Shown here piece by piece: positions 6,343 to 27,980 of a stretch of DNA of 44,034 bases (its first letter is position 1; each line of letters begins with the position of its first letter). Below the pieces are notes generated by a model. That model was given only the letters and a program-made list of their open reading frames with translations, ran no database searches and was not told the DNA's origin. The stretch comes from Chitinophagales bacterium 33-2. GTDB lineage: Bacteria > Bacteroidota > Bacteroidia > Chitinophagales > Chitinophagaceae. The stretch lies in the NCBI GenBank assembly GCA_002050435.1, contig MWYV01000064.1, forward strand, positions 1 through 44,034, in the 5' to 3' direction. The translations under genes and the position numbers were made by a program.

Positions 6343-6412
6343 AGTAGATAATTTTGCTTCTAAATTTCAAATAACGTACCATCTCTTCATTCTAATTTCT
6401 TTAACAACCTCT

Positions 6413-6441
6413 AAAAAAAAGAGGCAACATGTGTTGCCTCT
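6413..6441 (-). terminator. Terminator of the 189-aa secreted-protein gene (copy 1)
   Basis: A 10-bp stem, AGAGGCAACA with TGTTGCCTCT, has a 2-base centre (6420-6441) and is followed on the minus strand by eight T. It lies 35 bp after the stop of the 189-aa gene and separates it from the OmpA gene. Confidence 0.88.
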
Positions 6442-6476
6442 AGTGGAATTTCATAAAAAATCTCATAAGAACGTAT

Positions 6477-7046: not shown

Positions 7047-7200
7047 ATAATTAATTTATGTGGGGAATCATTCGGGCACATCTTACACAATACTGTGCCA
7101 AAATCCCCAAATGTTAGAAAATACTGCTGCTGCTGCTCCTTTGTTAAAAATTTTAGTAAAGGCTGCTGCTCCTTTATCTTCGCTGCCGGAAGGAATAAAT

Positions 7201-8418
7201 ATGAAAAAAACGGGTCGCCTGAAAACGCAAGAGGGACAATTAGAAACAATAGAAATATTTGGTGCACGCGAACACAACCTAAAAAATATTGATATTGTTA
7301 TTCCAAAAAATCAGCTTGTTGTTATAACCGGTATCAGTGGCAGTGGAAAGTCTTCGCTTGCATTTGATACAATCTATGCCGAGGGCCAGCGCAGGTATAT
7401 GGAAACATTTGGTGCCTATGCACGCCAGTTTATCGGTGAAATGGAAAGGCCCGATGTTGATAAGATCACGGGACTTTCACCTGTGATATCCATAGAGCAG
7501 AAAACAACTAACAAAAATCCACGATCAACAGTTGGAACAGTTACAGAAGTTTATGACTTCCTGCGTTTACTTTTCGCACGGGCCAGCGAGGCCTGGTCTT
7601 ACAATACCGGTAAAAAAATGGTGCGGTGGAGTGAAGATCAAATTGTTAATAATATTTACAAGCGTTTTGACGGGAATAAAATTACCATCCTTGCTCCCCT
7701 GATCCGTGGAAGAAAAGGTCATTACAGGGAACTTTTTGAAGAAGTAAGAAAGAAAGGATTTTTGAAAGTGCGCGTGGATGGTGAGGTAAAAGACCTGGTG
7801 CCGAAAATGCAGGTTGACCGCTACAAGATCCATGACATTGAACTGGTGATCGACAGGATGAAAGTGACCAAAGACATGCGCACCCGCATCAGCCAGAGTG
7901 TGCAACATGCGCTTAAGGCCGGGAAAGATTTAATGTTTCTTACCTATGAAGCTGATGCTGCTTCCGGTGTTGCTAAATATGGTGAAGTGGCTTACAGCAG
8001 GCTTTTGATGTGTGAGGCAACCGGGATCTCTTATGAAGAGCCATCACCCAATTCATTTTCTTTTAATTCACCTTATGGTGCCTGTCCTGCATGCAAAGGT
8101 CTTGGTCAGGTATATACAGTAGATATGGAAGCCATTATTCCTGATGATTCTAAAACAATCAATGAAGGTGGCATTGCACCTCTGGGTGGAGAAAGAGAAG
8201 CATATGTTTTCAGACAGGTGCAGCTGCTTATCCATTTTTCTTCCGATCACGGCTCCGGTTACACCACCAACAGCAGCACCAATAATGGCGCCCATAGCAG
8301 TATTGCCTGCAGCTTTTCCAACTACAGCTCCAACAGCTCCACCACCGGCAGTGCCTATAACAGCGCCTTTTTGAGATCTGCTCATAGATTTACAACCTGC
8401 GGCCATAACAGCAAATAA
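7201..8418 (+). pseudogene. Truncated uvrA copy fused to antisense OmpA sequence
   Basis: Codons 1-341 equal the start of the intact uvrA at 9313. At 8224 the frame crosses the duplication join and runs for 64 codons through sequence antisense to the OmpA lipoprotein gene before a stop. The first Walker A (GISGSGKS) is present, but the ABC signature, second ATPase half, and second zinc module are absent, so the product cannot be a working UvrA. It keeps the normal upstream region, so it may still be transcribed and could make a roughly 405-aa fusion. Confidence 0.88.
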
Positions 8419-8454
8419 GGCCATCATAATACTAAATTGTCTTAATGTCTTCAT
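8068..8454 (-). pseudogene. Truncated OmpA lipoprotein copy
   Basis: The first 77 residues equal the lipoprotein at 5671-6342: signal, lipid-accepting Cys and the whole glycine zipper. The frame then crosses the join at 8223 and continues 51 residues in sequence antisense to uvrA. The peptidoglycan-binding OmpA domain is missing. The intact upstream region means a zipper-only lipoprotein could be made. Confidence 0.88.
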
Positions 8455-8524
8455 AGTAGATAATTTTGCTTCTAAATTTCAAATAACGTACCATCTCTTC
8501 ATTCTAATTTCTTTAACAACCTCT

Positions 8525-8553
8525 AAAAAAAAGAGGCAACATGTGTTGCCTCT
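8525..8553 (-). terminator. Terminator of the 189-aa secreted-protein gene (copy 2)
   Basis: Same hairpin and T-run as at 6413-6441, shifted by 2112 bp. Confidence 0.87.
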
Positions 8554-8588
8554 AGTGGAATTTCATAAAAAATCTCATAAGAACGTAT

Positions 8589-9158
8589 CTATAAGGAACT
8601 TGTAACCTCATCTGCTTCTTTGACTCCGGTTGCCTTCGTTGCGGAATAAAACTGGATTTTAACCTTGGATTTTGCATTTGCAGATTTTGTTTTCACTTTT
8701 ACTTCTGTACCAGCCTCTGTTACCGGTTCAGCAAGTGCAAAAACTGCAGTCGGGTTGGCATTATCAAATGCTTTTCCAATCGCGATCTGTAAAGTGTTGG
8801 TCTCCTGGTCTAAAAATAAAGTACCCTCAGCAAGCTGGGTTCCCTTACCGGTTTTTTGAGCCACAATCCTGTAGGTAGCAGGGGATTGCTTTAGATAAGC
8901 TTTAAATTTTCCTTGTGGCAGTCCTTCAACCCAAACAATGCCTTTACTCAGACTATCAATTGTAATAACCACTTCAGAAGGAGCATCCGAATTGTTCAAT
9001 TGGTATGTACCAAGCACGGGGAAAGCTTTATCAATAGTAATCGCTTCAGGCATGGGTAGTTGCCTGTATTTGGCAGCGATAGAATCAACTGTAGACTGTG
9101 CATTTACTGATAACGCAAAAGAAAAAGCAAAGACGAAGAGAAAAAAGGTGTTTTTCAT
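8589..9158 (-). CDS. Secreted protein of unknown function (copy 2)
   Basis: Identical in sequence to the 189-aa protein at 6477-7046, with the same signal peptide, upstream region and terminator. It is the only gene fully contained in the duplicated unit, so its dosage would be doubled if the duplication is real. It is divergent from the intact uvrA. No family is recognised. Confidence 0.85.
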   Translation of the reverse strand: MKNTFFLFVFAFSFALSVNAQSTVDSIAAKYRQLPMPEAITIDKAFPVLGTYQLNNSDAPSEVVITIDSLSKGIVWVEGLPQGKFKAYLKQSPATYRIVAQKTGKGTQLAEGTLFLDQETNTLQIAIGKAFDNANPTAVFALAEPVTEAGTEVKVKTKSANAKSKVKIQFYSATKATGVKEADEVTSSL

Positions 9159-9312
9159 ATAATTAATTTATGTGGGGAATCATTCGGGCACATCTTACAC
9201 AATACTGTGCCAAAATCCCCAAATGTTAGAAAATACTGCTGCTGCTGCTCCTTTGTTAAAAATTTTAGTAAAGGCTGCTGCTCCTTTATCTTCGCTGCCG
9301 GAAGGAATAAAT

Positions 9313-12201
9313 ATGAAAAAAACGGGTCGCCTGAAAACGCAAGAGGGACAATTAGAAACAATAGAAATATTTGGTGCACGCGAACACAACCTAAAAAATA
9401 TTGATATTGTTATTCCAAAAAATCAGCTTGTTGTTATAACCGGTATCAGTGGCAGTGGAAAGTCTTCGCTTGCATTTGATACAATCTATGCCGAGGGCCA
9501 GCGCAGGTATATGGAAACATTTGGTGCCTATGCACGCCAGTTTATCGGTGAAATGGAAAGGCCCGATGTTGATAAGATCACGGGACTTTCACCTGTGATA
9601 TCCATAGAGCAGAAAACAACTAACAAAAATCCACGATCAACAGTTGGAACAGTTACAGAAGTTTATGACTTCCTGCGTTTACTTTTCGCACGGGCCAGCG
9701 AGGCCTGGTCTTACAATACCGGTAAAAAAATGGTGCGGTGGAGTGAAGATCAAATTGTTAATAATATTTACAAGCGTTTTGACGGGAATAAAATTACCAT
9801 CCTTGCTCCCCTGATCCGTGGAAGAAAAGGTCATTACAGGGAACTTTTTGAAGAAGTAAGAAAGAAAGGATTTTTGAAAGTGCGCGTGGATGGTGAGGTA
9901 AAAGACCTGGTGCCGAAAATGCAGGTTGACCGCTACAAGATCCATGACATTGAACTGGTGATCGACAGGATGAAAGTGACCAAAGACATGCGCACCCGCA
10001 TCAGCCAGAGTGTGCAACATGCGCTTAAGGCCGGGAAAGATTTAATGTTTCTTACCTATGAAGCTGATGCTGCTTCCGGTGTTGCTAAATATGGTGAAGT
10101 GGCTTACAGCAGGCTTTTGATGTGTGAGGCAACCGGGATCTCTTATGAAGAGCCATCACCCAATTCATTTTCTTTTAATTCACCTTATGGTGCCTGTCCT
10201 GCATGCAAAGGTCTTGGTCAGGTATATACAGTAGATATGGAAGCCATTATTCCTGATGATTCTAAAACAATCAATGAAGGTGGCATTGCACCTCTGGGTG
10301 GAGAAAGAGAAGCATATGTTTTCAGACAGGTGCAGGCACTTTCCAAAAAAAGCAGGTTCAGTCTTGATAAGCCCATAAAAGATCTTTCGCCAAAAGCTTT
10401 AAACCTGATACTTTTTGGAAAGGAAGATGCTGACGAAACAGGTGAATTAGCGTTTGATGATGAACAACTGGATGGGAATATTTATGAAGGAACATTTGAA
10501 GGCGTTGTACAACAGGTGAAGCGCTGGTTTGCTACAAGTACCAGTGAAGCCATACAGCGGTGGGCCGAAGGTTTTATGAAACTTACGGTTTGTAAATCAT
10601 GTGAGGGCGCGCGTCTTAAAAAAGAAAGTTTATGGTTTAAGGTAGACGAGAAAAATATTGCTGAATTAAGCAATATGGATCTTGTGCATTTGTTGGAATG
10701 GTTTGATGGAATTGAAAAGCAGCTCAATCAAAACCAAAAAATCATAGGCAGAGAGATCATTAAAGAGATCAGAGAAAGATTGCAGTTCCTGCTTGATGTA
10801 GGACTTACTTATCTCACATTGAATCGGCCAACCAGGACACTGAGTGGTGGCGAATCACAGAGAATTCGGCTGGCCACCCAGATCGGTTCACAGTTGCAGG
10901 GTATTACTTATGTTTTGGATGAGCCATCCATTGGATTACACCAACGCGATAACCAGCGCCTCATCTCCGCACTAAAAAACCTGCGCGACATTGGGAACAG
11001 TGTTTTGGTAGTGGAACATGATAAGGACATCATGCTTGCTGCAGATCACCTCATTGATGTGGGCCCCAAAGCAGGTTTTCATGGCGGAAAGATCATGGCG
11101 CAGGGTACACCTGCATTTGTACTGACACACGATACGCTCACCGCCCAATATTTAAATGGCCGGCGTACAATTGCTGTACCATCTGAAAGAAGAAAGGGTA
11201 ATGGAAAATCCATTGAGATCAAAGGCGCCAATGGCAATAATTTAAAGAACGTTTCTATTAAATTTCCATTAGGAAAACTGATCGTGGTTTCTGGTGTGAG
11301 CGGAAGCGGGAAATCTACACTAATCAACGAAACACTTTATCCATTGCTATCCAAACATTGTTATGGATCAAGAGCCAATGCACTGGAATATAAAAAAGTA
11401 TCAGGATTGGAACATATTGATAAAGTGATTGAGATCGATCAGTCGCCCATAGGGCGCACACCAAGAAGCAATCCTGCAACCTATTGCGGCTTCTTTACTG
11501 AAATCAGAACGCTTTACGCATCCATTCCTGAAGCAAAGATCCGTGGATATACAGCCGGCCGGTTTTCTTTCAATGTAAAAAGCGGAAGGTGCGAAGTGTG
11601 TGAAGGCAGCGGATTAAGAACCATTGAAATGAATTTTCTGCCTGACGTTTATGTGCATTGCGAAAAATGCAATGGTAAAAGGTACAGTCGCGAAACACTG
11701 GAGATCAGGTATAAGGGAAAATCAATTGCAGATGTGCTGAACATGACGGTTGAAGAAGCGGTTGAATTTTTTCAGAACATTCCATTTATTTACAGGAAGA
11801 TCAAAGTGCTGCAGGATGTTGGATTGGGCTATATCACCCTCGGGCAATCCGCTGTAACCCTCAGCGGGGGAGAGGCGCAACGCGTAAAACTTGCAACAGA
11901 ACTGGCAAAGCGGGATACAGGTAAAACGTTTTATATTCTGGATGAACCTACAACGGGTTTGCATTTTGAGGACATTCATCATTTGCTTGAAGTGATCAAT
12001 AAACTGGTGGACCGTGGTAATTCTGTTTTGGTGATTGAACACAATATGGATGTTATTAAAGTGGCAGATCATATTATTGATATTGGACCTGAAGGCGGCG
12101 ATGGGGGCGGAAGGGTTTTGTTTGAAGGTTTGCCCGAAGATTTGGTGAAGGTGAAGGGAAGTCATACAGGACGCTACCTTGCACCTGAATTGAAAGCATA
12201 A
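9313..12201 (+). CDS. uvrA: Excinuclease ABC subunit A
   Basis: UvrA, the damage-sensing ATPase of nucleotide excision repair, works as a dimer with UvrB in the cytoplasm. From the ATG at 9313 it is 962 aa, near the family's usual 940-960. An earlier frame start at 9172 would add 47 low-complexity residues and was rejected; GGAAGGA lies just before 9313. Visible elements are Walker A at residues 44-51 (GISGSGKS), first signature LSGGESQRIRLA, second Walker A GVSGSGKST, the paired CxxC zinc module (CEVC and CEKC), and second signature LSGGEAQRVKLA with Walker B FYILDEPTTGLH. The first zinc module is incomplete: CPACKG is present, but the upstream partner reads MCEATG with one Cys. The first 341 codons are duplicated upstream. 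Confidence 0.97.
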   Translation: MKKTGRLKTQEGQLETIEIFGAREHNLKNIDIVIPKNQLVVITGISGSGKSSLAFDTIYAEGQRRYMETFGAYARQFIGEMERPDVDKITGLSPVISIEQKTTNKNPRSTVGTVTEVYDFLRLLFARASEAWSYNTGKKMVRWSEDQIVNNIYKRFDGNKITILAPLIRGRKGHYRELFEEVRKKGFLKVRVDGEVKDLVPKMQVDRYKIHDIELVIDRMKVTKDMRTRISQSVQHALKAGKDLMFLTYEADAASGVAKYGEVAYSRLLMCEATGISYEEPSPNSFSFNSPYGACPACKGLGQVYTVDMEAIIPDDSKTINEGGIAPLGGEREAYVFRQVQALSKKSRFSLDKPIKDLSPKALNLILFGKEDADETGELAFDDEQLDGNIYEGTFEGVVQQVKRWFATSTSEAIQRWAEGFMKLTVCKSCEGARLKKESLWFKVDEKNIAELSNMDLVHLLEWFDGIEKQLNQNQKIIGREIIKEIRERLQFLLDVGLTYLTLNRPTRTLSGGESQRIRLATQIGSQLQGITYVLDEPSIGLHQRDNQRLISALKNLRDIGNSVLVVEHDKDIMLAADHLIDVGPKAGFHGGKIMAQGTPAFVLTHDTLTAQYLNGRRTIAVPSERRKGNGKSIEIKGANGNNLKNVSIKFPLGKLIVVSGVSGSGKSTLINETLYPLLSKHCYGSRANALEYKKVSGLEHIDKVIEIDQSPIGRTPRSNPATYCGFFTEIRTLYASIPEAKIRGYTAGRFSFNVKSGRCEVCEGSGLRTIEMNFLPDVYVHCEKCNGKRYSRETLEIRYKGKSIADVLNMTVEEAVEFFQNIPFIYRKIKVLQDVGLGYITLGQSAVTLSGGEAQRVKLATELAKRDTGKTFYILDEPTTGLHFEDIHHLLEVINKLVDRGNSVLVIEHNMDVIKVADHIIDIGPEGGDGGGRVLFEGLPEDLVKVKGSHTGRYLAPELKA

Positions 12202-18661: not shown

Positions 18662-19327
18662 TTATGCCTGTTCAACGATACCTGCTTTCACAGCATACAT
18701 AACCAGTCCGGCCATGGATTTTACCCCTGTTTTTGTTTTAAGTTTATCTCTTATTGCTTCTACGGTGCGGGGACTGAGGTCTACCATATCAGCAATTTCC
18801 TTTGTGCTTTTTTCTTCACACATCAATTTAAGGATGGTGATCTCCTTGTCCGACAACTGCACATCGGGAACAGGAGATTCCTGTGGCTTTTTCATTCTAA
18901 GGCCATTTAATAAAGCCTTATTGGTAAGATCATTAAAAAAGAACTCCTGTTCGTAACAGGTACAAATAGCCTGGTAGATGGTTTCAGAATCTGATTCTTT
19001 GGTAAGGTATGAATTAGCACCGATTTCCATCATTTTTGTAATAATGGAAGGATCGTTATTCATAGACAGCATGATCACCTTTATCTGGGGATATAATTTT
19101 TTTATTTCAGGTAGGGTAGTGTAGCCATCCATAATGGGCATGTGTATATCCAGAAGCACCACATCCGGCTGAATATGTTTAAGAAGGTTCATGAGCTGCA
19201 TCCCGTTTTCAGCTTCAGCGATCATGTGAATGTCTTTCCGGGAAGATAGTGAGGTTTTTACGCCAGTACGGAATAGGGCATGGTCATCAGCTATGGCCAC
19301 TTTAATGACAGTGTCAGGATTCTTCAT
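18662..19327 (-). CDS. NarL/FixJ-family response regulator (orphan)
   Basis: A 221-aa two-component regulator. The receiver domain spans residues 8-125, with acidic pocket Asp14-Asp15, phospho-acceptor Asp60 (LLDIHMP), the switch Ser in MLSMNND and Lys in YLTKESD. The LuxR-type helix-turn-helix covers about 155-221 (LSDKEITILKLMCEEKSTKEIADMVDLSPRTVEAIRDKL). No kinase gene adjoins it: the next gene on its strand is unknown and its downstream neighbour is convergent. It is most like the regulator at 24504, sharing ADDH, MMEIGANSYLTKE and the TV-AIR recognition helix. A cluster of TACG/CGTA tetramers sits 90-182 bp upstream of its start. Confidence 0.94.
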   Translation of the reverse strand: MKNPDTVIKVAIADDHALFRTGVKTSLSSRKDIHMIAEAENGMQLMNLLKHIQPDVVLLDIHMPIMDGYTTLPEIKKLYPQIKVIMLSMNNDPSIITKMMEIGANSYLTKESDSETIYQAICTCYEQEFFFNDLTNKALLNGLRMKKPQESPVPDVQLSDKEITILKLMCEEKSTKEIADMVDLSPRTVEAIRDKLKTKTGVKSMAGLVMYAVKAGIVEQA

Positions 19328-19540: not shown

Positions 19541-20608
19541 TTAGTTTTGCCATTGATTTTTTTCCACATCCGAAAGTTGTTCGGTGTTTACCAGCAGTTT
19601 GAGTCTTTCAAACAGGGTATTTAACCTCATTCCCAATGCATCGGATTGTTTGCTTTCGCTGTAAAGCAGTTCCAGTTCTTTTAAAGAGGCATCTGCCTGT
19701 TTTGAATTTATATTTTTCCCAAGCGATTTTGATTCCACCAGGATACTTCTGATCTGATGGTAGTTTTCCCCATACACTTTCTGATATTCCATAAACAGCT
19801 TTTGTAAAGTATAAGAAATGTCCTTTGCGTTTTTTAAAGCGTCTGATGGGAAATGTACAGCCATATCTTTATTGTTTACAAAGTGGTCATGGAGCCGGGT
19901 TTTTTCAAGATAGGTGAGGTAAAGATCTTCTGGGGAAATGGCTTTGAGATCCCCCCGCCTGACATTATATAATAACGTAATGATGTCGAGTAAAAATTCC
20001 TTTGTATCAAATTGTAATTCTACCATTTTTTGTGTCAGTTTACTCAGGTTCTGGTCAAACTGCATATTGGATTGATTGAGTTTCTGGTATTGAATAAAAT
20101 ATTTGGAAGTAGTCATAATAAAACTGTCAAGGTCGGATTTGGTGATCTTTTTTTCCTGTATGGTAAGGTTACCTACCATACTCATTAGGCTGGAAAACAT
20201 GGGGTTGATTCCGGATAAAATTGATTGCGAAAACGGGATCCTGTTTGGTGTTTGGATAAGAGAGGAAACAATCTGGGAAAATTTATTTGGGTCCACATTT
20301 TTTGCTTTGGCCAGCAGGGGTTTCAGCGCAGCATTGACTTCATGCTCCAGGCTAAAGCCGAGTTCTGTGGAAGTAGGGTTATTCAGGGAAATCACTTTAG
20401 TCCTGTAATTTTCTTTTTTTAAAAGGCTTTGGAATGAGTTGATGGAATTGATGGCAGCATCAAGAAAATCTGAGCAGGCGGTAAATTGTTTTATCAGTTT
20501 TTCGCGCCCGGCGTAAACAGAATCTCCGGGAAAATACTTAGCCGGCCGGCTATGACCGGAGCCAAGGCAAAGCCACAACAGAATGGTAATAATTGAGGTA
20601 CTGGTCAT
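19541..20608 (-). CDS. Predicted exported helical protein, unknown
   Basis: A 355-aa protein that I do not recognise. It begins with a hydrophobic stretch (SIITILLWLCLGSGHS), which may be a signal peptide or anchor. The rest is Lys/Gln/Ser/Leu-rich and likely mostly helical, with heptad-like runs (QNLSKLTQKMVELQF, SLGKNINSKQADASLKELELLYS) and no enzymatic motifs. It lies divergent from the first 7TM-kinase-regulator module with 188 bp between starts, and upstream of the orphan regulator on its own strand. That position makes a role connected with the signalling genes possible, but there is no direct evidence. Confidence 0.75.
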   Translation of the reverse strand: MTSTSIITILLWLCLGSGHSRPAKYFPGDSVYAGREKLIKQFTACSDFLDAAINSINSFQSLLKKENYRTKVISLNNPTSTELGFSLEHEVNAALKPLLAKAKNVDPNKFSQIVSSLIQTPNRIPFSQSILSGINPMFSSLMSMVGNLTIQEKKITKSDLDSFIMTTSKYFIQYQKLNQSNMQFDQNLSKLTQKMVELQFDTKEFLLDIITLLYNVRRGDLKAISPEDLYLTYLEKTRLHDHFVNNKDMAVHFPSDALKNAKDISYTLQKLFMEYQKVYGENYHQIRSILVESKSLGKNINSKQADASLKELELLYSESKQSDALGMRLNTLFERLKLLVNTEQLSDVEKNQWQN

Positions 20609-20796: not shown

Positions 20797-21495
20797 ATGG
20801 AATCATTAATCAAATATTTTGGAGGAAGTTACTATACATACCTTTTGGTGTTTTTAACCTCTTTAATTGCATTTGTCTTTTCATTAAAAAATGCAAATGG
20901 AAATTTTAAAATATTTCAGCTATATTTTTTCGTTTATTTATTTTGTCAAGTATTTTTTATTTCTGGAGACTTTGTGTATAAAACTAAGTGGTGGTTAAAT
21001 TATATGCCCTTACAATACACTGTCGATTTTATTTTTACCATTTTTGAATTTTTAATTTTTTCAATAGTATTTTATAAGTCTTTTCAAAGGTTTTATCGGA
21101 TTATATTATTAGTAATTGTTTCAATTTTTTTAGTTATATCATTTTATCTTCTATACTTTGATGAATTAGCTTTCGGTTTCCTTCAATTATCTACTGTAGA
21201 AAACCTTTTTTTGTGGCAATCATTTTTGCTTATCATTCCATGTTGCTTGTACTTTCATCAAGTTTTTAAGGTTCTATTACCTTTCCCTCTTATTTCTGAT
21301 CCAATTTTTTGGGTTGCATCAGGTTTGACATGCTTTCACTTAGCGACATTGCCTTTTACTTTGTTAATGAATTATTTAAGATCTACTGATTTTAGTTTGT
21401 ATACATCATTATATTCAATAGTATACATATTTTATATGTTATTATTCACTTCAATATTAAAAGCTATTTCATGCAGGCAGAAATTAGCCAGTTAA
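20797..21495 (+). CDS. 7TM integral membrane protein, putative sensor (module 1)
   Basis: A 232-aa protein with about seven hydrophobic segments (roughly residues 12-28, 40-60, 74-93, 102-121, 137-153, 164-190, 200-223) and only short loops. I recognise no named domain. It has the same size, topology and gene context as the protein at 25778: each is directly followed by a HisKA_3 kinase and a NarL-type regulator. A role as membrane-embedded sensor for the kinase is inferred from that. The gene overlaps the kinase start at 21471 by 25 bp, implying translational coupling. It is noticeably more AT-rich than its neighbours, partly from Phe, Leu and Ile codons. The 826-bp duplication begins at 21345 inside it, leaving it intact. 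Confidence 0.82.
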   Translation: MESLIKYFGGSYYTYLLVFLTSLIAFVFSLKNANGNFKIFQLYFFVYLFCQVFFISGDFVYKTKWWLNYMPLQYTVDFIFTIFEFLIFSIVFYKSFQRFYRIILLVIVSIFLVISFYLLYFDELAFGFLQLSTVENLFLWQSFLLIIPCCLYFHQVFKVLLPFPLISDPIFWVASGLTCFHLATLPFTLLMNYLRSTDFSLYTSLYSIVYIFYMLLFTSILKAISCRQKLAS

Positions 21496-22170
21496 TATTT
21501 TTTGTGACTATGACCACATTGATCATTTTCCTTTTTGCAGGATTTATTATCATGGTTTTATATCTCCATCAAAGGCGACTTTTGATTCATATGGAGTATA
21601 CAAAAAAGGTGATGCTGGATAATGAACGCAACCTGTTGCAGTCACAGGTGGAAACCCAGGAACAGACTTTTCATGATATTTCAAAAGAAATCCATGATAA
21701 CATCAGCCTCACCCTTACACTGGCCAAATTAAACCTGAACACCATTAACTGGAATGATACCGAACGAATAGCGGATACCGTTACCTCCACCGTTGAAGTT
21801 ATTTCCAATGCGATCTCAGAATTGAATAATCTTTCCAGGAGTATGAATTCAGATATTATTAAAAACCTGGGTTTACACAGAGCGATTAAAATGGAAATGG
21901 AAAGGCTTAAAAATTTTACCACTTTAGAAATTGAATTGAAAATCGAAGGGGAGCCTGTTTTTATAGATTGTGAAAAGGAACTTGTGCTATTCAGGATCTT
22001 TCAGGAGAGCTTTAATAATATTCTGAAACATGCCGAGGCAAAAAAGGTAGATCTGCTTTTAATTTACCATAAGGAGCATTTAGAGGTGCTGATTGAAGAT
22101 GATGGAGTGGGGTTCCCTATAAAACCTGTGGAGCATGCAAATTCAAAGGAAAAAATCAGGTCCGGAATGC
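21345..22170. repeat. Tandem duplication, copy 1 (826 bp)
   Basis: Repeated head to tail at 22171-22996. The unit runs from the last 151 bp of the 7TM gene through most of the kinase gene. The join shares two bases (GC) with the alternative sequence. I see two base differences: A21684/G22510 and C22163/T22989. Confidence 0.93.
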
Positions 22171-22193
22171 GACATTGCCTTTTACTTTGTTAA
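21471..22193 (+). pseudogene. Truncated histidine kinase copy
   Basis: Its first 233 codons correspond to the intact kinase at 22297, including the membrane segment, phospho-acceptor His75 and the ATPase N box (NNILKHAE) and D-G region (EDDGVGF). The frame crosses the duplication join at 22170 and ends seven codons later, so the last part of the ATPase domain, with the glycine-rich NMANRAKSIGGGL segment, is lost. It probably cannot autophosphorylate. It differs from the intact copy at codon 72 (Lys here, Glu there). It retains the native overlap with the 7TM gene and so should be the better-translated copy. Confidence 0.85.
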
Positions 22194-22321
22194 TGAATTA
22201 TTTAAGATCTACTGATTTTAGTTTGTATACATCATTATATTCAATAGTATACATATTTTATATGTTATTATTCACTTCAATATTAAAAGCTATTTCATGC
22301 AGGCAGAAATTAGCCAGTTAA
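22171..22321 (+). pseudogene. Remnant of the 7TM gene 3' end
   Basis: A 151-bp duplicate of the end of the gene at 20797 (equivalent to 21345-21495), without a start. It places the intact kinase gene behind a fragment that carries no ribosomes of its own. Confidence 0.85.
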
Positions 22322-22996
22322 TATTTTTTGTGACTATGACCACATTGATCATTTTCCTTTTTGCAGGATTTATTATCATGGTTTTATATCTCCATCAAAG
22401 GCGACTTTTGATTCATATGGAGTATACAAAAAAGGTGATGCTGGATAATGAACGCAACCTGTTGCAGTCACAGGTGGAAACCCAGGAACAGACTTTTCAT
22501 GATATTTCAGAAGAAATCCATGATAACATCAGCCTCACCCTTACACTGGCCAAATTAAACCTGAACACCATTAACTGGAATGATACCGAACGAATAGCGG
22601 ATACCGTTACCTCCACCGTTGAAGTTATTTCCAATGCGATCTCAGAATTGAATAATCTTTCCAGGAGTATGAATTCAGATATTATTAAAAACCTGGGTTT
22701 ACACAGAGCGATTAAAATGGAAATGGAAAGGCTTAAAAATTTTACCACTTTAGAAATTGAATTGAAAATCGAAGGGGAGCCTGTTTTTATAGATTGTGAA
22801 AAGGAACTTGTGCTATTCAGGATCTTTCAGGAGAGCTTTAATAATATTCTGAAACATGCCGAGGCAAAAAAGGTAGATCTGCTTTTAATTTACCATAAGG
22901 AGCATTTAGAGGTGCTGATTGAAGATGATGGAGTGGGGTTCCCTATAAAACCTGTGGAGCATGCAAATTCAAAGGAAAAAATCAGGTCTGGAATGC
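22171..22996. repeat. Tandem duplication, copy 2 (826 bp)
   Basis: The second copy of the 21345-22170 unit. It runs into the unique 3' end of the intact kinase gene. Confidence 0.93.
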
Positions 22997-23097
22997 TCAA
23001 TATGGCAAACCGTGCGAAATCCATTGGTGGTGGATTAACCATGGAAAGCATAATAAACAAGGGTACCTCTATTTCTTTATCAGTACCATACCAATAA
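22297..23097 (+). CDS. HisKA_3-type sensor histidine kinase (module 1, intact)
   Basis: A 266-aa kinase with one N-terminal membrane segment (about residues 8-32), a short coiled linker, a HisKA_3 dimerisation and phospho-acceptor region with His75 (EEIHDNISLTL), and a HATPase domain: N box NNILKHAE, EDDGVGF, and MANRAKSIGGGL. It has no periplasmic or PAS-type sensor domain, so signal input probably comes from a partner, plausibly the 7TM protein. Residue 72, three before the His, is Glu here and Lys in the truncated copy. The gene ends two bases before the regulator gene. The duplication has separated it from the intact 7TM gene, so it must now start translation independently. Confidence 0.93.
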   Translation: MQAEISQLIFFVTMTTLIIFLFAGFIIMVLYLHQRRLLIHMEYTKKVMLDNERNLLQSQVETQEQTFHDISEEIHDNISLTLTLAKLNLNTINWNDTERIADTVTSTVEVISNAISELNNLSRSMNSDIIKNLGLHRAIKMEMERLKNFTTLEIELKIEGEPVFIDCEKELVLFRIFQESFNNILKHAEAKKVDLLLIYHKEHLEVLIEDDGVGFPIKPVEHANSKEKIRSGMLNMANRAKSIGGGLTMESIINKGTSISLSVPYQ

Positions 23098-23099
23098 TA

Positions 23100-23756
23100 A
23101 TGGAAAAAATTAAAATTGCAATTGTAGACGATCACGTTTTATTAAGAAATGCCCTTGCCAGCCTGGTTAGCAGCTTTGAAAATACCAAAGTGGTTTATGA
23201 AGCAAAAAATGGACTGGATCTCATTGATAAAATAAAGATCAACCCCCTGCCGGATGTTGTTTTGCTTGACCTGAGTATGCCGGAGATGGATGGTTATGAT
23301 ACTGCTTTGTGGTTAAAGAAACATTACCCGGATGTACAGATTTTGATGCTTACGATGTATGATTCGGAACTCACACTGATCCGTCTTTTGCAGGCAGGTG
23401 TAAAAGGGTTTTTAAAGAAAGACATAGATCCAAGTGAACTCAAATTTGCAATCAATTCGGTCGTTAATTCAGGATACTATTATTCCACTCAAACTGCCGG
23501 ACGGCTTGCAAATCTTTTCAGAAACAGTTCAGTAGCAAATCCTAAAGTGCAGAATGCACTGATGACGGACCAGGAAATTAATTTTCTAAAAATGGCTTGT
23601 ACTGATAAAACATATAAGGAGATCGCGCAACATATGGGACTTACACCAAGGAGTGTTGACGCATTGAGGGATCATCTTTTTGTAAAGCTGGATGTAAAGA
23701 GCAGGGTAGGATTGGCAATGGTGGCCATAAAAAATGGTGTAGTATCTATGTCTTAA
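23100..23756 (+). CDS. NarL/FixJ-family response regulator (module 1)
   Basis: A 218-aa regulator. Receiver: acidic pocket Asp10-Asp11, phospho-acceptor Asp57 (LLDLSMP), switch Thr in MLTMYDS, Lys in FLKKDIDP. Output: LuxR-type helix-turn-helix from about 150 (MTDQEINFLKMACTDKTYKEIAQHMGLTPRSVDALRDHL). It begins two bases after the kinase stop and is the evident partner of that kinase. Its recognition helix (TPRSVDALRDHL) differs from the SPRTVE type of the other three regulators, suggesting a different target sequence. It is convergent with, and overlaps by 11 bp, the methyltransferase gene. Confidence 0.95.
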   Translation: MEKIKIAIVDDHVLLRNALASLVSSFENTKVVYEAKNGLDLIDKIKINPLPDVVLLDLSMPEMDGYDTALWLKKHYPDVQILMLTMYDSELTLIRLLQAGVKGFLKKDIDPSELKFAINSVVNSGYYYSTQTAGRLANLFRNSSVANPKVQNALMTDQEINFLKMACTDKTYKEIAQHMGLTPRSVDALRDHLFVKLDVKSRVGLAMVAIKNGVVSMS

Positions 23757-24504
23757 TTTTTTCGACTACTATATAAACCTGGGCATCCCCTAATTTGAAT
23801 GGTTTTTTTCTTGGTGTAGCGAATAATGAAGCAATTTTCAATCCCGCCAACCCTAACATATCACTGATTTCATTTAAAGAAAAAATATAGTCTACACCTT
23901 TTATGGTTTCAATCTTATTGTCTGGGGAAATGACATGTTGAATGGATTCTATCCTGCATGGATCAAAATAGTATTCATAATCAAGGAGGTATTTATAATC
24001 ATCCACATAATACCAATCCTTTGTTTTGAAATGTTTAATAGCGATTTCCGCGATCATCCACGAGTTGATAATGATTTTACCGGAAGTTTCCAAAAAGCCA
24101 GATAAATTTTGTAATAGCCTGTTGGCTTCTTCCTTATTAAAAAAAGAAAAACTGTTCCCCATGCAAATAATCGCATTAAATTTTTCAGAAGGCTGATATA
24201 AAAGAGCATGATCAAGAACTGGCTCAATAGGTAAAGAATTGTTTGATCCTTTGTTCCTGATCTCTTCAATATACTCCGGTTGATTATCAACTGCCTTAAC
24301 CTGATATCCTTTTTCTGCAAGTCCAATTGCATGCCTTCCATGCCCACACATGAGGTCAAGTACTTTATCCATTTCCTTAAGGTCACATATTTCAATAATG
24401 AATTCAATTTCCACCCCGGTTAAAGCAACAGGCATCATTTTTTTCCAGACCTTTTTGTAAACGCCATCAAAAAAAGAGTCGTTTATATTGGAAGGCGCCT
24501 CCAT
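23746..24504 (-). CDS. Class I SAM-dependent methyltransferase
   Basis: A 252-aa enzyme. Motif I is at residues 48-58 (VLDLMCGHGRH) and binds S-adenosylmethionine; an acidic residue follows in VKAVDNQ (motif II), and AIICMGNSFSFF fits motif III-IV. The substrate is not evident; the protein resembles broad class I small-molecule methyltransferases. Its ATG overlaps the stop of the upstream regulator gene (TAATG), so the two are translationally coupled, an unusual partner for a response regulator. Its 3' end overlaps the convergent module 1 regulator by 11 bp. Confidence 0.9.
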   Translation of the reverse strand: MEAPSNINDSFFDGVYKKVWKKMMPVALTGVEIEFIIEICDLKEMDKVLDLMCGHGRHAIGLAEKGYQVKAVDNQPEYIEEIRNKGSNNSLPIEPVLDHALLYQPSEKFNAIICMGNSFSFFNKEEANRLLQNLSGFLETSGKIIINSWMIAEIAIKHFKTKDWYYVDDYKYLLDYEYYFDPCRIESIQHVISPDNKIETIKGVDYIFSLNEISDMLGLAGLKIASLFATPRKKPFKLGDAQVYIVVEKIKT

Positions 24505-25160
24505 TATTCCAGGAGTTTATTTCTTGTAGCATACATCACCAGGCCGGCAATGGTTTTAGCTCCCACCTTTTGTTTCATTTGCTGTCGGATGGTTTCAATG
24601 GTGCGGGGACTTAAGAAAACCTCCTTGGAAATTTCCTCGGTGGTTTTGTCTTCAGCAATACATTTTAGAATTCTGATTTCTTTTTCAGAGAACTTTATGG
24701 GATTGGGATAATACTGCTTGATGGCTTTTTTGTGCTGTAATTTGAGCAACACGGCTTTGTTGACCAGATCATTAAAGTAAAAATCATCATTCATGCAGGT
24801 TAGTATGGCCTGGTAGATCTCGTCGGGTTCAGTTGTTTTTGTCAGGTAAGCATTGGCTCCCATTTCCATCATTTTCGTAATCATTTCCTGGTCATCATAC
24901 ATAGTCAGTACAATGATCTTCACTTCCTCATATTCCTTCCTTATCAATCCAATTGCATTGACCCCGTCGATTTCCGGCATTCTGATATCCATTAACAATA
25001 CATCAGGTTGTTTTAGTATCAACTTGTGCATGAGGTCTTTGCCATCTTCGGCCTCCCATAAAATTTTGAGGTATTCTCGGTCTTTCAGGGCCATTTTTAT
25101 TCCATCCCTGAAGATCTTGTGGTCATCAGCAATGGCCACCTTAATTATTTGGGCAGTCAT
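24504..25160 (-). CDS. NarL/FixJ-family response regulator coupled to methyltransferase
   Basis: A 218-aa regulator. Receiver: Asp12-Asp13, phospho-acceptor Asp58 (LLMDIRMP), Thr in VLTMYDD, Lys in AYLTKTTEP. Output helix-turn-helix from about 152 (FSEKEIRILKCIAEDKTTEEISKEVFLSPRTIETIRQQM). It has no adjacent kinase on its strand, so it may be served by the kinase of either flanking module. It is close in sequence to the orphan regulator at 18662. It is divergent from module 2, sharing a 617-bp intergenic region with two matching dyads, and forms a two-gene unit with the methyltransferase. Confidence 0.94.
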   Translation of the reverse strand: MTAQIIKVAIADDHKIFRDGIKMALKDREYLKILWEAEDGKDLMHKLILKQPDVLLMDIRMPEIDGVNAIGLIRKEYEEVKIIVLTMYDDQEMITKMMEMGANAYLTKTTEPDEIYQAILTCMNDDFYFNDLVNKAVLLKLQHKKAIKQYYPNPIKFSEKEIRILKCIAEDKTTEEISKEVFLSPRTIETIRQQMKQKVGAKTIAGLVMYATRNKLLE

Positions 25161-25200
25161 GGAAATTGGTTTTTAAAATTGGTTTATAAGCAGTAGAATT

Positions 25201-25208
25201 CAAAACTA
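25201..25208 (-). promoter_or_regulatory. -7 box of the 24504 regulator gene
   Basis: Minus-strand TAGTTTTG matches TAnnTTTG. It lies 40 bp before the ATG at 25160. No -33 TTG is clear at the expected distance. Confidence 0.45.
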
Positions 25209-25295
25209 ATTGATTTTTAGTGGCTAATCTGGCTTTTATTTAAAATTCCCGGTATTTGCAGCAAGTTTAAATAAACGTATTTACACGATATATGG

Positions 25296-25311
25296 CTCGT
25301 AAAAATACGTG
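25296..25311. promoter_or_regulatory. Dyad CTCGTA-N4-TACGTG
   Basis: An inverted repeat of 6-bp half sites with a 4-bp spacer (AAAA) and one mismatch. It has the same architecture as the perfect dyad at 25530-25545. Both lie in the divergent region between a response-regulator gene and module 2, making this a candidate regulator binding site. Confidence 0.45.
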
Positions 25312-25529
25312 GCCTTATCCTAAATTGCAACACTAAATAAAAATTTCCTGAAAGAGCTGTTTTTTCCTGGCTCACCAAATGCTATCTTGGATTCTGGCTG
25401 ATGATCATCTGATTATATTCCCTGCTCTCATAAAGAAAATGCGCTCCCAACCTGGTCACCTTTCCCTGTTTTTTTATTTTTGCCCCTAGTATTTTTACGA
25501 TTTTTATTTCGTAGTTTCACGTTTTATTT

Positions 25530-25545
25530 CTCGTAAGCTTACGAG
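25530..25545. promoter_or_regulatory. Perfect 16-bp palindrome CTCGTA-N4-TACGAG
   Basis: CTCGTAAGCTTACGAG is fully palindromic. Additional TACG or CGTA tetramers lie at 25276, 25496 and 25510. No T-run follows, so it is not a terminator. A candidate operator for one of the adjacent NarL-type regulators. Confidence 0.5.
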
Positions 25546-25671
25546 GAAAAACCCGGGAAAGCATTGAAAAACCTAGGTTATTATTAAAAATGTCCATTTG
25601 TGTTGATTTATACCTGTTGAAATCGATGTGGAAAGAACCAATTTTTACAGTTGTTAACAAAACTTACTGTC

Positions 25672-25737
25672 ATGACTAACAAAGTACAAAGAACCCGTCC
25701 AATTGTTGAAGACACAAATTGGTGGGAAGCTGAGTAA
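25672..25737 (+). CDS. Possible 21-aa peptide upstream of module 2
   Basis: A short frame, ATG at 25672 to TAA at 25737, encodes 21 residues starting MTNKVQRTR and ending NWWEAE. It has no signal peptide, membrane segment or Cys. It ends 40 bp before the module 2 7TM gene and is upstream of that gene's -7 box. I see no good ribosome-binding site. It might be a leader peptide, a peptide signal, or chance; the two adjacent Trp codons recall leader peptides but prove nothing. Confidence 0.3.
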   Translation: MTNKVQRTRPIVEDTNWWEAE

Positions 25738-25764
25738 TCATTTTTAATTTCTACATAGGTTTTC

Positions 25765-25772
25765 TATATTTG
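25765..25772 (+). promoter_or_regulatory. -7 box of signalling module 2
   Basis: TATATTTG matches TAnnTTTG exactly and ends five bases before the ATG at 25778. The transcript would be leaderless or almost so. Confidence 0.55.
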
Positions 25773-25777
25773 AGGCA

Positions 25778-26458
25778 ATGACCAAAACTATAGAAGACCT
25801 ATTTTTTTATGCGGTATTTGCTGCTGATCTAATTGTTATTCTCCAAATTATCTTCTTTTTTAAAATTACTGCCCTCAATAAGGTATTGTGGTCGATTTTA
25901 CTTTACTGTTTATTAAATAGCACAGTCAATATTCTCTCTTCAAATATTAATTCTATTTCCTCGCATTATATTTTGTTGGTGCTATTTACTTCATTGGAAT
26001 ATTTATTATTTTCTACTATTTTCTATTATAGCATTAAGTCTAATAAGTTTAAAAAACTTATTATAGTATTTAGTTTCTTGTTTTTGATTTTAATAACTAT
26101 AAACTTTTTATACGGCAAGCACAAAAATTATGACTCTTTATCTATAGGAGTAGAAACCATTCTTGTAATGGTTTATTGTTTTTATTACCTCTATGAACAA
26201 ATGAATGACCTCAGTACTTCCTTTATTTACCACAGGTATCATTTCTGGATCGCTATAGGAATACTGATCTACCTTGGGGGTAGTTTTTTCATTTATATTT
26301 TTGCAGATAAAGTGGACAACAGCATTCTGGATGACTATTGGTTTCTTACTTATGCATTCTACATTGTAAAAAATATATTCTTTTTAATTGGCATTGGGCA
26401 CCTAATCAGCCAAAGCAAACAATCTACCCTTTCCAGGGTTAAACCTTATACAAACTAA
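25778..26458 (+). CDS. 7TM integral membrane protein, putative sensor (module 2)
   Basis: A 226-aa protein with about seven hydrophobic segments (roughly residues 7-27, 36-53, 61-84, 91-110, 121-140, 151-172, 186-210). No named domain is recognised. It matches the protein at 20797 in size, topology and position before a kinase and regulator. Both have an aromatic Glu-containing third segment (TSLEYLLFSTIFYY here, FTIFEFLIFSIVFY there) and a final segment with IV-FYM or YIVKNIFFLI. They look like distant paralogues. A role as membrane-embedded sensor or sensor partner is inferred. The stop is one base before the kinase ATG. Confidence 0.82.
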   Translation: MTKTIEDLFFYAVFAADLIVILQIIFFFKITALNKVLWSILLYCLLNSTVNILSSNINSISSHYILLVLFTSLEYLLFSTIFYYSIKSNKFKKLIIVFSFLFLILITINFLYGKHKNYDSLSIGVETILVMVYCFYYLYEQMNDLSTSFIYHRYHFWIAIGILIYLGGSFFIYIFADKVDNSILDDYWFLTYAFYIVKNIFFLIGIGHLISQSKQSTLSRVKPYTN

Positions 26459-26459
26459 C

Positions 26460-27308
26460 ATGATGTTTTTCCTACAGGCCACCTCCCATTCAAGCATTTC
26501 CCTGGTTCTCTTCCTGGGAACGTTAGGTATGCTGGTGCTGACCATTGGCCTGATCCTGTTCATTATTTTTCACCAGAGAAAAGTGATCCGGTATCAGTTG
26601 AAACTGCAACACATGGAACATGAGCAACAAAAAATATTATTGAATGCTTCCATACGCTTGCAGGAAGAAGAAAGACAAAGACTCGCAGCAGATCTGCATG
26701 ACGATGCAGGACCTTTATTGGCCACCGCACGTTTATATTTAAGTGAAAACCTTGTCAACCAGGACAAAGCCACACAACTTCAATCTATTTTTCAGGCAAG
26801 ACAAATATTAGATGATACCATTCAGCTGATCCGGAATATCAGTCACAATCTTATGCCTCCGACATTAAAGAATTTTGGACTTGAATCTGCAACAAATGAC
26901 CTTTTTCAAAAAATCAGTGGATCGGGTGCTATAAATGCCAGCAGCAGGTTTCATGATTATAAGGAACGTTTAAAACCAGAAGTGGAACTCATCGTATTCC
27001 GTGTGATACAGGAATTGATCAATAATATTTTAAAGCACAGTAATTCCAGCTTTATCCACCTGACCCAGAATGTTCATGCAGGCATGTTTATTCTCAGAAT
27101 TCACCATGATGGGAGAGGAATCGTGCAGGCTGATTTTGAAAAGTTGAATAAAAGCAATGTAGGACTGGGTTTGAAAAATATCAGTAGCCGGCTGAGGGTT
27201 GCGCAGGGCAGTATTTATTTTGAAAAAGATCCTTCCCAAACTTATTATAAGGTTACTATGGAAATACCTAAAGAAGAACAATTAGAATCGATGGGTACAA
27301 AATCCTAA
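26460..27308 (+). CDS. HisKA_3-type sensor histidine kinase (module 2)
   Basis: A 282-aa kinase. One membrane segment (about residues 13-37) is followed by a coiled stretch, then the HisKA_3 box with phospho-acceptor His80 (RLAADLHDDAGPLLATA) and a HATPase domain with NNILKHSN, HHDGRGI and VGLGLKNISSRLR. No extracytoplasmic or PAS domain is present. It is a paralogue of the kinase at 22297 with the same short layout. The start could also be the second Met (26463). It lies one base after the 7TM gene and 21 bp before the regulator gene. Confidence 0.94.
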   Translation: MMFFLQATSHSSISLVLFLGTLGMLVLTIGLILFIIFHQRKVIRYQLKLQHMEHEQQKILLNASIRLQEEERQRLAADLHDDAGPLLATARLYLSENLVNQDKATQLQSIFQARQILDDTIQLIRNISHNLMPPTLKNFGLESATNDLFQKISGSGAINASSRFHDYKERLKPEVELIVFRVIQELINNILKHSNSSFIHLTQNVHAGMFILRIHHDGRGIVQADFEKLNKSNVGLGLKNISSRLRVAQGSIYFEKDPSQTYYKVTMEIPKEEQLESMGTKS

Positions 27309-27329
27309 TTTTATTCCGGAGTTCAGGTT

Positions 27330-27980
27330 ATGGATGTAATCAAAGTAGCAATTGCCGACGACCACAAAATATTCCGGAAAGGCGTAATCCTTTCTCTCCG
27401 GCCTTATACAAATATTAAATTTGTGTTGGAAGCAGAAAATGGAAACGACCTGCTCCTGGGCCTTCCGGCCACCGAACCTGATGTTGTACTGATGGATCTG
27501 CGCATGCCAGGTAAAGATGGAATAGAAACGACTAAACTGGTAAGTAAGCAATTTCCCAAAATTCATATCCTTGTGCTGAGCATGTATGAAGATGAACGTT
27601 TTGTTTCGCACCTGATGGAGAATGGCGCGAACGGATACCTGCTGAAAAATGCTGAACCTTCGGAAATCCGGAAAGCAATTATTGATGTCCATGAAAAAGG
27701 ATATTACCTTAATAGTTTTGTAAACCGCATCCTTCTTAAAAAAGCACATTCCAAACAAAAAGTTGTTCCCTCATTAAGCCGGGAGATTACCTTAAGCGAT
27801 AAGGAGCGGGATGTGCTGAAGTATATCTGCATGGAGTTTACCGCACAGGAAATTGCGCAAAAAATGGATATCAGTCCCAGGACAGTAGAAGCAATAAAAG
27901 ACAGGCTGATGGAAAGGTTTGGAAGTAAGAACACTGCCGGACTTGTATTTTTTGCAGTTAAAAACAACCTCGTAGATTAA
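27330..27980 (+). CDS. NarL/FixJ-family response regulator (module 2)
   Basis: A 216-aa regulator. Receiver: Asp10-Asp11, phospho-acceptor Asp56 (LMDLRMP), switch Ser in VLSMYED, Lys in YLLKNAEP. Output helix-turn-helix from about 150 (LSDKERDVLKYICMEFTAQEIAQKMDISPRTVEAIKDRL). It is the expected partner of the kinase immediately upstream. Its stop abuts the stop of the convergent dprA gene with no base between. Confidence 0.95.
   Translation: MDVIKVAIADDHKIFRKGVILSLRPYTNIKFVLEAENGNDLLLGLPATEPDVVLMDLRMPGKDGIETTKLVSKQFPKIHILVLSMYEDERFVSHLMENGANGYLLKNAEPSEIRKAIIDVHEKGYYLNSFVNRILLKKAHSKQKVVPSLSREITLSDKERDVLKYICMEFTAQEIAQKMDISPRTVEAIKDRLMERFGSKNTAGLVFFAVKNNLVD

What the first reader, a model, noticed from the sequence alone, without database searches (positions are those of the whole stretch)
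20797..27980. Two paralogous 7TM-protein / HisKA_3-kinase / NarL-regulator modules: a candidate split-sensor system
Both modules have the same gene order and tight coupling: 25-bp overlap or 1-bp gap between 7TM gene and kinase, then 2 or 21 bp to the regulator. The kinases have one membrane segment and no sensor domain; the 7TM proteins have no kinase domain. This suggests that the 7TM protein senses and signals to a minimal kinase. Canonical 7TM-receptor kinases carry both parts in one chain. I do not recognise the 7TM family.
Basis: partly seen in the sequence, partly recalled or inferred. Interest (0 to 1): 0.75.

Follow-up and report, generated by a model that had tools for sequence, protein, structure and literature searches.

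The report
Split 7TM receptor with peptide gene
A soil bacterium of the phylum Bacteroidota carries a fast-changing seven-helix membrane protein, a near-constant partner kinase and a tiny peptide gene side by side, a layout repeated across the phylum that looks like a bacterial peptide-and-receptor signalling system.

Summary
Kinase A is present twice through an 826-bp tandem repeat, possibly an assembly artefact. A 21-aa peptide gene (25672-25737) sits just before 7TM-B. The 7TM proteins form one undescribed family: no Pfam or NCBIfam family fits, AlphaFold gives a seven-helix bundle (pLDDT 93.9), topology is N-out. A kinase gene follows in 76 of 80 B-type loci (3 of 4 others are contig ends) and 30 of 30 phylum loci (window included). 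No profile hit was fused. A small-protein gene usually precedes the 7TM gene; searching with one of its subfamilies led to a 7TM gene in 18 of 21 loci outside its training set. In B modules of Chitinophagaceae it is a 118-136-aa precursor-like protein with a variable Trp-rich tail, or only a 15-27-aa peptide. Peptide and 7TM form a hypervariable island between near-invariant kinase and regulators (one pair: kinase and both regulators identical, 7TM 43%, peptide 22%). Best reading: a ligand-receptor pair feeding a conserved minimal kinase, a split, agr-like system. Linkage, homology and variability are shown; binding and export are inferred. Ten literature searches found no description.

The parts
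25672..25737 (+). 21-aa peptide ORF MTNKVQRTRPIVEDTNWWEAE just upstream of 7TM-B; candidate ligand or ligand precursor
   Evidence: same-position short ORFs in 32 of 45 loci (window included) vs 0.7 expected from shuffles, criterion set after seeing examples
25755..25802 (+). RNA hairpin (arms 25755-25768 / 25789-25802) followed by a T-run, overlapping the first codons of 7TM-B; holds TATATTTG (25765-25772), like the Bacteroidota -7 element (recalled)
   Evidence: z -5.78; covariation 0.220 vs 0.126 shuffled; TANNTTTG in 72 of 75 loci vs 10.5 expected
25778..26458 (+). 7TM-B receptor-like protein (226 aa)
26460..27308 (+). minimal HisKA_3 kinase B (282 aa, one membrane helix)
27330..27980 (+). 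NarL/LuxR-type response regulator B
24504..25160 (-). divergent NarL-type regulator (RRx), conserved upstream of the peptide-7TM genes
   Evidence: 64 of 80 loci
20797..21495 (+). 7TM-A receptor-like protein (232 aa)
21471..22193 (+). kinase A, first copy, 3'-truncated by the tandem repeat (240 aa)
22297..23097 (+). kinase A, intact copy (266 aa)
21343..22994 (+). two head-to-tail copies of an 826-bp unit (21343-22168 / 22169-22994)
23100..23756 (+). NarL/LuxR-type response regulator A
18662..19327 (-). NarL-type regulator (RRy); related genes lie in the same direction upstream in several relatives

Best explanation
The module is a split receptor system. The 7TM protein is the sensing subunit. 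It passes its state through the membrane to a minimal kinase that has one membrane helix and no sensor domain of its own, and the kinase phosphorylates the NarL-type regulator. The small gene just upstream encodes the cognate ligand or its precursor: a small protein with a variable C-terminal tail in most of the family, shortened to a 15-27-aa peptide in the window's lineage. Splitting the receptor from the kinase lets ligand and receptor change together quickly while kinase and regulators stay constant. Shown: linkage, homology, predicted topology, the hypervariable island and co-divergence. Inferred: 7TM-kinase contact, ligand binding, export of the peptide, and its use for sensing kin or cell density.
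For: Kinase next door: 76 of 80 B loci, 45 of 49 order-level 7TM ORFs, 30 of 30 phylum loci with three kinase classes; no fusion among the profile hits in 61 of 296 genomes, frames up to 318 aa. Small protein next door: three subfamilies align by profile; search from one of them gave 7TM directly downstream in 20 of 23 loci, 18 of 21 after dropping two that repeat training genes. Short ORF in 32 of 45 loci vs 0.7 expected. Over 90 locus pairs with kinase identity of at least 0.88, medians are kinase 0.92, RR 0.95, RRx 0.94, 7TM 0.39; in the five pairs compared along the DNA, identity drops most across peptide or leader tail and 7TM. 7TM and leader distances correlate beyond kinase distance (partial r 0.52, 0 of 2000 permutations, 27 loci). 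N-out/C-in by the positive-inside rule, outer membrane halves less conserved than inner (0.27 vs 0.35), 15 of 44 small proteins with Sec- or lipoprotein-like N-termini.
Against: 29 of 44 small proteins show no export signal by my simple test, and no exporter or protease was recognised as part of the cassette. Module A of the window has no recognisable peptide gene. 13 of 45 B loci and 4 of 7 further loci fail the Trp-peptide criterion; of these L025, same genus, has the conserved upstream box and a similar peptide without Trp, L060 has one further upstream, L116 has a long protein. The criterion was chosen after seeing the data. Four of 49 order-level 7TM ORFs have no kinase directly downstream: two are the first of a tandem 7TM pair, L011 has only a regulator, L013 is a doubtful 343-aa member. 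Fold matches to rhodopsins and GPCRs are not significant by E-value (best 0.038). No complex was predicted. The intracellular loops of the 7TM are also variable (0.22). Hypervariability alone also fits a phage or toxin target.
Confidence: 0.6

Rival explanations
1. The 7TM protein processes or exports the small protein or peptide (an AgrB-like role), and something else activates the kinase.
For: The cassette has the same four roles as agr: precursor, membrane protein, kinase, regulator. Precursor and membrane protein co-diverge.
Against: The kinase has one membrane helix near its start and no sensor domain, so it can hardly bind the ligand itself. None of the 16 positions conserved in at least 75% of 74 B-type rows is Cys, His or Ser. 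No Pfam match to a protease or transporter.
Confidence: 0.13
2. The short ORF is a leader peptide of an attenuator: translation over its Trp codons controls the hairpin and so 7TM expression. It is not a ligand.
For: Short ORF, Trp codons near its end, then a covarying hairpin plus T-run over the 7TM start.
Against: In 29 other loci the same place holds a whole protein with a Trp tail in most of them. Elsewhere it is a longer homologous protein, 15 of 44 with an export-like start. Many short ORFs have one Trp only. No tryptophan gene appears among the window proteins scanned.
Confidence: 0.12
3. The small protein is an intracellular or periplasmic modulator of the 7TM-kinase complex that responds to another cue, not a signal between cells.
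For: 29 of 44 small proteins have no visible export signal; 10 look like lipoproteins that would stay on the cell.
Against: Hypervariable tail and 7TM with constant kinase are not expected of a generic modulator.
Confidence: 0.2
4. The 7TM protein diversifies because phages or bacteriocins use it as a target, not because it recognises a ligand.
For: Sharp hypervariable island; outer halves vary more.
Against: The small protein co-diverges with the 7TM, and the intracellular loops vary too.
Confidence: 0.06

Closest known systems
agr (AgrBDCA) and ComCDE peptide-pheromone two-component systems of Gram-positives (recalled)
   Same: Precursor peptide, membrane protein, kinase and regulator in one locus; hypervariable ligand and receptor in a constant background.
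   Different: Here receptor and kinase are separate chains; kinase is HisKA_3 and regulator NarL-type in the window, not HPK10 and LytTR; Gram-negative Bacteroidota; no AgrB or AgrD family match.
Sensory rhodopsin and its Htr transducer (recalled)
   Same: A seven-helix receptor that signals through a separate membrane-anchored transducer chain.
   Different: No Pfam rhodopsin match; partner is a histidine kinase, not a chemotaxis transducer; a small-protein gene is linked.
HisKA_7TM receptor kinases (PF16927)
   Same: About 220-aa seven-helix input region coupled to a histidine kinase.
   Different: The nine PF16927 hits over cut-off lie in open frames of 579-954 aa, one chain; a tenth, weak hit is in a 134-aa frame; profile comparison with our family 5%.
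BtsS, a LytS-type 7TM kinase that binds pyruvate (PMC10653868; title and start of abstract seen in the listing)
   Same: 7TM input for a histidine kinase.
   Different: One chain (recalled) and a small-molecule ligand; 7TM family not matched here.
LiaF-LiaS-LiaR (recalled)
   Same: Separate membrane protein, minimal HisKA_3 kinase and NarL-type regulator in one operon.
   Different: LiaF is another membrane protein family, and no hypervariable ligand gene belongs to that operon.

Membership tests
HisKA_3 / NarL two-component system | HisKA_3 plus HATPase_c kinase with a receiver plus GerE regulator | tested here: met
   the HisKA_3 score of kinase A (22-23 bits) is just under the 24-bit cut-off, that of kinase B is above it
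HisKA_7TM receptor kinase (PF16927) | sequence match of the 7TM region to PF16927 | tested here: not met
   not among the families matched by 38 members; none in G000; probability 5%
HisKA_7TM receptor kinase (PF16927) | 7TM region and kinase in one chain | tested here: not met
   window genes separate; 7TM open frames at most 318 aa among the hits; three weak single-sequence hits (E 0.0014-0.007) in frames of 326, 352 and 564 aa were not followed up except L013
7TMR-DISM receptors | match to a Pfam 7TMR-DISM model | tested here: not met
   not among the 20 Pfam families matched by any of the 38 members at E<=1
Pyr4-like terpene cyclase (PF25129) | match to PF25129 | tested here: not met
   1 of 38 members at E 5.1e-6, but none of the 7TM loci matched in 12 genomes, G000 included
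microbial rhodopsin / GPCR fold | significant structural match to a solved member | tested here: inconclusive
   the 50 hits listed are rhodopsins and GPCRs, probability 0.91-1.00, but best E 0.038 and TM-score by query length 0.36-0.62
microbial rhodopsin | retinal-binding Lys in helix 7 throughout the family | tested here: inconclusive
   K198 in helix 7 in 89% of the 74 rows of A3; I did not map the position in the rest of the family; retinal binding not testable here
agr-type quorum sensing | AgrB, AgrD, HPK10 kinase and LytTR regulator families | tested here: not met
peptide-pheromone signalling (as a mode of action) | secreted peptide that activates the cognate receptor | not testable with these tools
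   needs an experiment
peptide-pheromone signalling (as a mode of action) | hypervariable ligand and receptor next to a conserved kinase and regulator | tested here: met
   (that the two hypervariable parts are ligand and receptor is inferred)

The most novel reading that the evidence does not exclude
A phylum-wide, previously undescribed peptide-signalling system of Bacteroidota: hypervariable peptide ligands, ranging from 15-aa micropeptides to tails of small secreted proteins, are read by GPCR-like seven-helix receptors that are physically separate from a constant histidine kinase. Specificity is exchanged as a peptide-receptor cassette, giving pherotypes.
Probability: 0.4. Interest if true: 0.93.

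Novelty: new variant of a known kind. Interest (0 to 1): 0.85.

Why it matters
Peptide pheromone circuits are, to my knowledge (recall), studied mainly in Gram-positives, and the listings of my ten literature searches showed no such circuit for Bacteroidota. If this reading holds, a large phylum of soil, water and gut bacteria has its own peptide language, read by seven-helix receptors detached from their kinases. It would also give concrete ligand candidates for orphan kinases, and a natural set of allele pairs for specificity-swap tests.

Tried and rejected
HisKA_7TM membership: rejected. Pyr4-like terpene cyclase: one member matched, the family does not. Solved relatives by sequence: no significant one for 7TM or small proteins (best E 0.34 and 0.059). 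Solved fold for the leader domain: none (best E 0.087). Peptide gene for module A in the short form: not found. An HMM count of small proteins next to 7TM genes (77 of 79 hits; 23 of 49 order-level and 22 of 31 phylum-level 7TM genes) is partly circular, because the models were built from many of those loci, and it counts loci with the short peptide as misses; I rely on the search with other loci instead, where several of the 7TM genes had already been seen. The tool's terminator scan did not report the 7TM-B hairpin (AT-rich stem, long loop), so 'terminator' is not claimed. Of the five covariation measures two are weak (pairs with changes on both sides, 43 of 500 shuffles as high; further pair types, 81 of 500). 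The codon-position test on the short ORFs (differences 102/115/156 at positions 1/2/3; 43 of 117 single-difference codons synonymous vs 20% expected) is weak support only: pairs overlap and the alignment was made on the protein.
Full report
What is in the window. Module A is 7TM-A 20797-21495, kinase 21471-22193 (truncated) and again 22297-23097 (intact), regulator 23100-23756. Module B is 7TM-B 25778-26458, kinase 26460-27308, regulator 27330-27980. Between them, on the other strand, are a methyltransferase (23746-24504) and a NarL-type regulator (24504-25160), here RRx. Each 7TM protein has seven hydrophobic segments and each kinase one. The kinases match HisKA_3 (kinase A just under cut-off) and HATPase_c and no sensor domain. 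The kinase duplication comes from an 826-bp head-to-tail repeat with two mismatches. The same contig has a second, perfect 2112-bp tandem repeat that truncates a uvrA copy. The window lies in a 76-contig genome, 90% complete. Two such repeats in 44 kb make me suspect the assembly, though real duplications are not excluded.

The 7TM proteins. Neither matches Pfam at E<=1 or NCBIfam at E<=0.1. Scanning 38 family members gives no Pfam family shared by more than two. A- and B-type profiles are homologous (99.5%). AlphaFold2 gives a confident seven-helix bundle for 7TM-B (pLDDT 93.9, pTM 0.90). The 50 Foldseek hits listed in the PDB (of 527 at E<=10) are rhodopsins and GPCRs with probability 0.91-1.00, but no E-value is below 0.001, so I call the fold GPCR-like in layout, not homologous. 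Positive charges sit in loops 1-2 and 3-4 and in the C-terminus (means 3.15, 2.70, 3.16 K/R against 0.82-1.32 on the other side, with loop 5-6 in between at 1.57), hence N-out, C-in. The family does not coincide with PF16927 hits and is unlike that profile.

Beside a kinase. At E<=0.01 and counting the own genome, relatives of 7TM-B were found in 60 of 248 genomes of the order and of 7TM-A in 20 of 248. Among the 49 7TM ORFs of the loci fetched there (window and repeat fetches left out), 45 have a kinase directly downstream; of the four others two are the first of a tandem 7TM pair, L011 has a regulator but no kinase, and L013 is a doubtful 343-aa member with two hydrophobic segments. The profile search found the family in 61 of 296 genomes of the phylum, with open frames up to 318 aa and no fusion to a kinase; about ten candidates per genome were scored, so this is a lower bound. 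Of the four without the 7TM gene, three start at a contig end and L060 has a broken frame. In 30 phylum loci (the window's module B and a few loci already seen among them) a kinase gene follows in all 30: 26, L143 and L157, L145 (PAS kinase) and L156 (LytS-type, PF06580, with another type of regulator). The kinase class changes while the 7TM stays, which fits a modular input unit. Some loci carry two or three 7TM genes in a row.

A small partner gene. In front of 7TM-B lies a 21-aa ORF, MTNKVQRTRPIVEDTNWWEAE. At the same place many Chitinophagaceae have 15-27-aa ORFs with a basic start and a Trp-acidic end; in 22 of the 32 counted below, the DNA just before the ATG reads GTTACTGTT or CTTACTGTC. 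With one criterion (set after seeing examples) 32 of 45 loci without a longer gene there have such an ORF; dinucleotide shuffles give 0.7 (6 loci too close to a contig start were left out). On seven further loci from the genome search, 3 of 7 fit; L025, same genus, has the box and a similar peptide without Trp. In 29 other loci the place holds a 118-136-aa protein: a conserved domain, then a variable tail, with Trp in most (A4). Mean pairwise identity is 0.25 in the tail, 0.31 in the first 14 residues and 0.53 and 0.45 in the two main parts of the domain. AlphaFold folds residues about 10-111 and leaves the tail disordered (mean pLDDT 74.8 for the best of five models, 55.4 for the worst).

One small-protein family. 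Elsewhere in the phylum the frame before the 7TM gene is 98-318 aa long, many with a G[IV]R-x-[YF] core and an end such as N-x-G-x-x-C-P-P-x-C or a Pro-rich variant. The three subfamilies align by profile: A4-A8 99.4%, A8-A9 97.4%. None of 44 members has a Pfam or NCBIfam match above a family cut-off or a Pfam E-value below 0.01. The own genome has a third copy, in the order kinase, small protein (114 aa), 7TM, on contig 58. Searching 296 genomes with A8 and dropping the seven training loci, a 7TM gene lies directly downstream in 20 of 23 loci; two of these (L201, L203) scored on training genes, so the fair count is 18 of 21. Of the three misses, two have a 204-221-aa multi-helix frame in the gap and one ends at the contig border. 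By a simple test 15 of 44 small proteins have Sec- or lipoprotein-like N-termini and 29 do not.

A hypervariable island. Over 74 B loci the mean pairwise identity is 0.28 for the 7TM, 0.75 for the kinase and 0.78 for the regulator (70 loci). Among the 90 pairs with kinase identity of at least 0.88 the medians are kinase 0.92, regulator 0.95, RRx 0.94, 7TM 0.39. L068 and L069 have identical kinase, regulator and RRx proteins (0 differences), but 43% 7TM and 22% peptide identity; L063 and L064 have an identical kinase, one difference in the regulator, 63% 7TM and 59% peptide identity. Other pairs are similar throughout (L085/L088, L122/L125), so the divergence is not uniform. At DNA level the identity falls to 0.55-0.66 across the 7TM gene of L068/L069 and returns to 0.92 at the kinase start, while the non-coding DNA upstream is at 0.74-0.95; four further pairs show the same shape, weakest for window/L054, where the flanks are more diverged. 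Leader and 7TM distances correlate after removing kinase distance (27 loci, partial r 0.52, 0 of 2000 permutations). This is the pattern known from ligand-receptor pairs of peptide pheromone systems (recall).

How it most likely works. The kinase has no sensing part, so the neighbouring 7TM protein is the natural input. The small gene is the natural ligand. The shrinkage from domain-plus-tail to tail-sized peptide in the window's lineage suggests that the tail carries the signal. Splitting receptor and kinase would let the recognition cassette change without touching the output. Contact, binding, export and the biological purpose are not shown. Against the reading: missing export signals, no exporter recognised in the cassette, no peptide gene for module A, and loci with other or no peptides.

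A regulatory hairpin. The start of 7TM-B lies in a strong hairpin (-18.2 kcal/mol, z -5.78) followed by a T-run. The arms covary over 37 sequences that I picked from the 72 anchored ones (score 0.220 against 0.126 in shuffles, 0 of 500 as high, and at most 0.114 when slid; two of the five measures are weak). The anchor TANNTTTG lies near the 7TM start in 72 of 75 loci, 10.5 expected from shuffles, and resembles the Bacteroidota -7 promoter element (recalled). In 35 of 72 loci no ATG, GTG or TTG lies in the 7TM frame from about the motif to 30 nt after it; how those genes start is unexplained.

Print record. Ten full-text searches (listings and abstract beginnings seen only, no paper opened) showed no description of this 7TM family, small-protein family or cassette. 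The library lacks most subscription journals and holds no bioRxiv preprints, so this is not proof of absence.

Noticed in passing
6112-10335: Perfect 2112-bp head-to-tail repeat that leaves a truncated uvrA (7060-8418) before the full uvrA (9172-12201); with the 826-bp repeat it suggests an assembly artefact, or two recent duplications.
   Followed up: partly
25755-25802: Covarying hairpin plus T-run over the 7TM-B start, containing TATATTTG (TANNTTTG in 72 of 75 loci); could couple peptide transcript end, promoter and receptor start.
   Followed up: partly
L054-L133, 7TM-B genes: 35 of 72 7TM-B genes have no ATG, GTG or TTG near the conserved N-terminus, though the frame is open; start of translation unexplained.
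   Followed up: partly
L164:1670-3580 (own genome, contig 58): Third cassette in the same genome with permuted order: kinase, 114-aa small protein ending CPSTCPPPSVLNS, 7TM.
   Followed up: yes
L044, L046, L101, L109, L119, L126-L129, L131: Instead of the Trp peptide, other short ORFs at the same place, several of them hydrophobic (for example MNGIFDLAAAVVSIVKHLF in L044, the end of a longer ORF); perhaps other ligand classes, perhaps chance ORFs.
   Followed up: partly
L156:871-3600: 7TM and small protein paired with a LytS-type kinase (PF06580) and a regulator that is not of the usual type, so the input module is exchanged between kinase classes.
   Followed up: partly
L010, L015, L146, L155 and genome G402: Two or three 7TM genes in tandem, in L010, L015 and L146 before one kinase.
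   Followed up: no
24504-25160 and 18662-19327: Two further NarL-type regulators on the minus strand without a kinase beside them; RRx is conserved in 64 of 80 loci, hinting that one kinase may serve two regulators.
   Followed up: partly
19541-20608: 355-aa protein with a Sec-like start and no Pfam match at E<=1e-4, divergent from 7TM-A.
   Followed up: no
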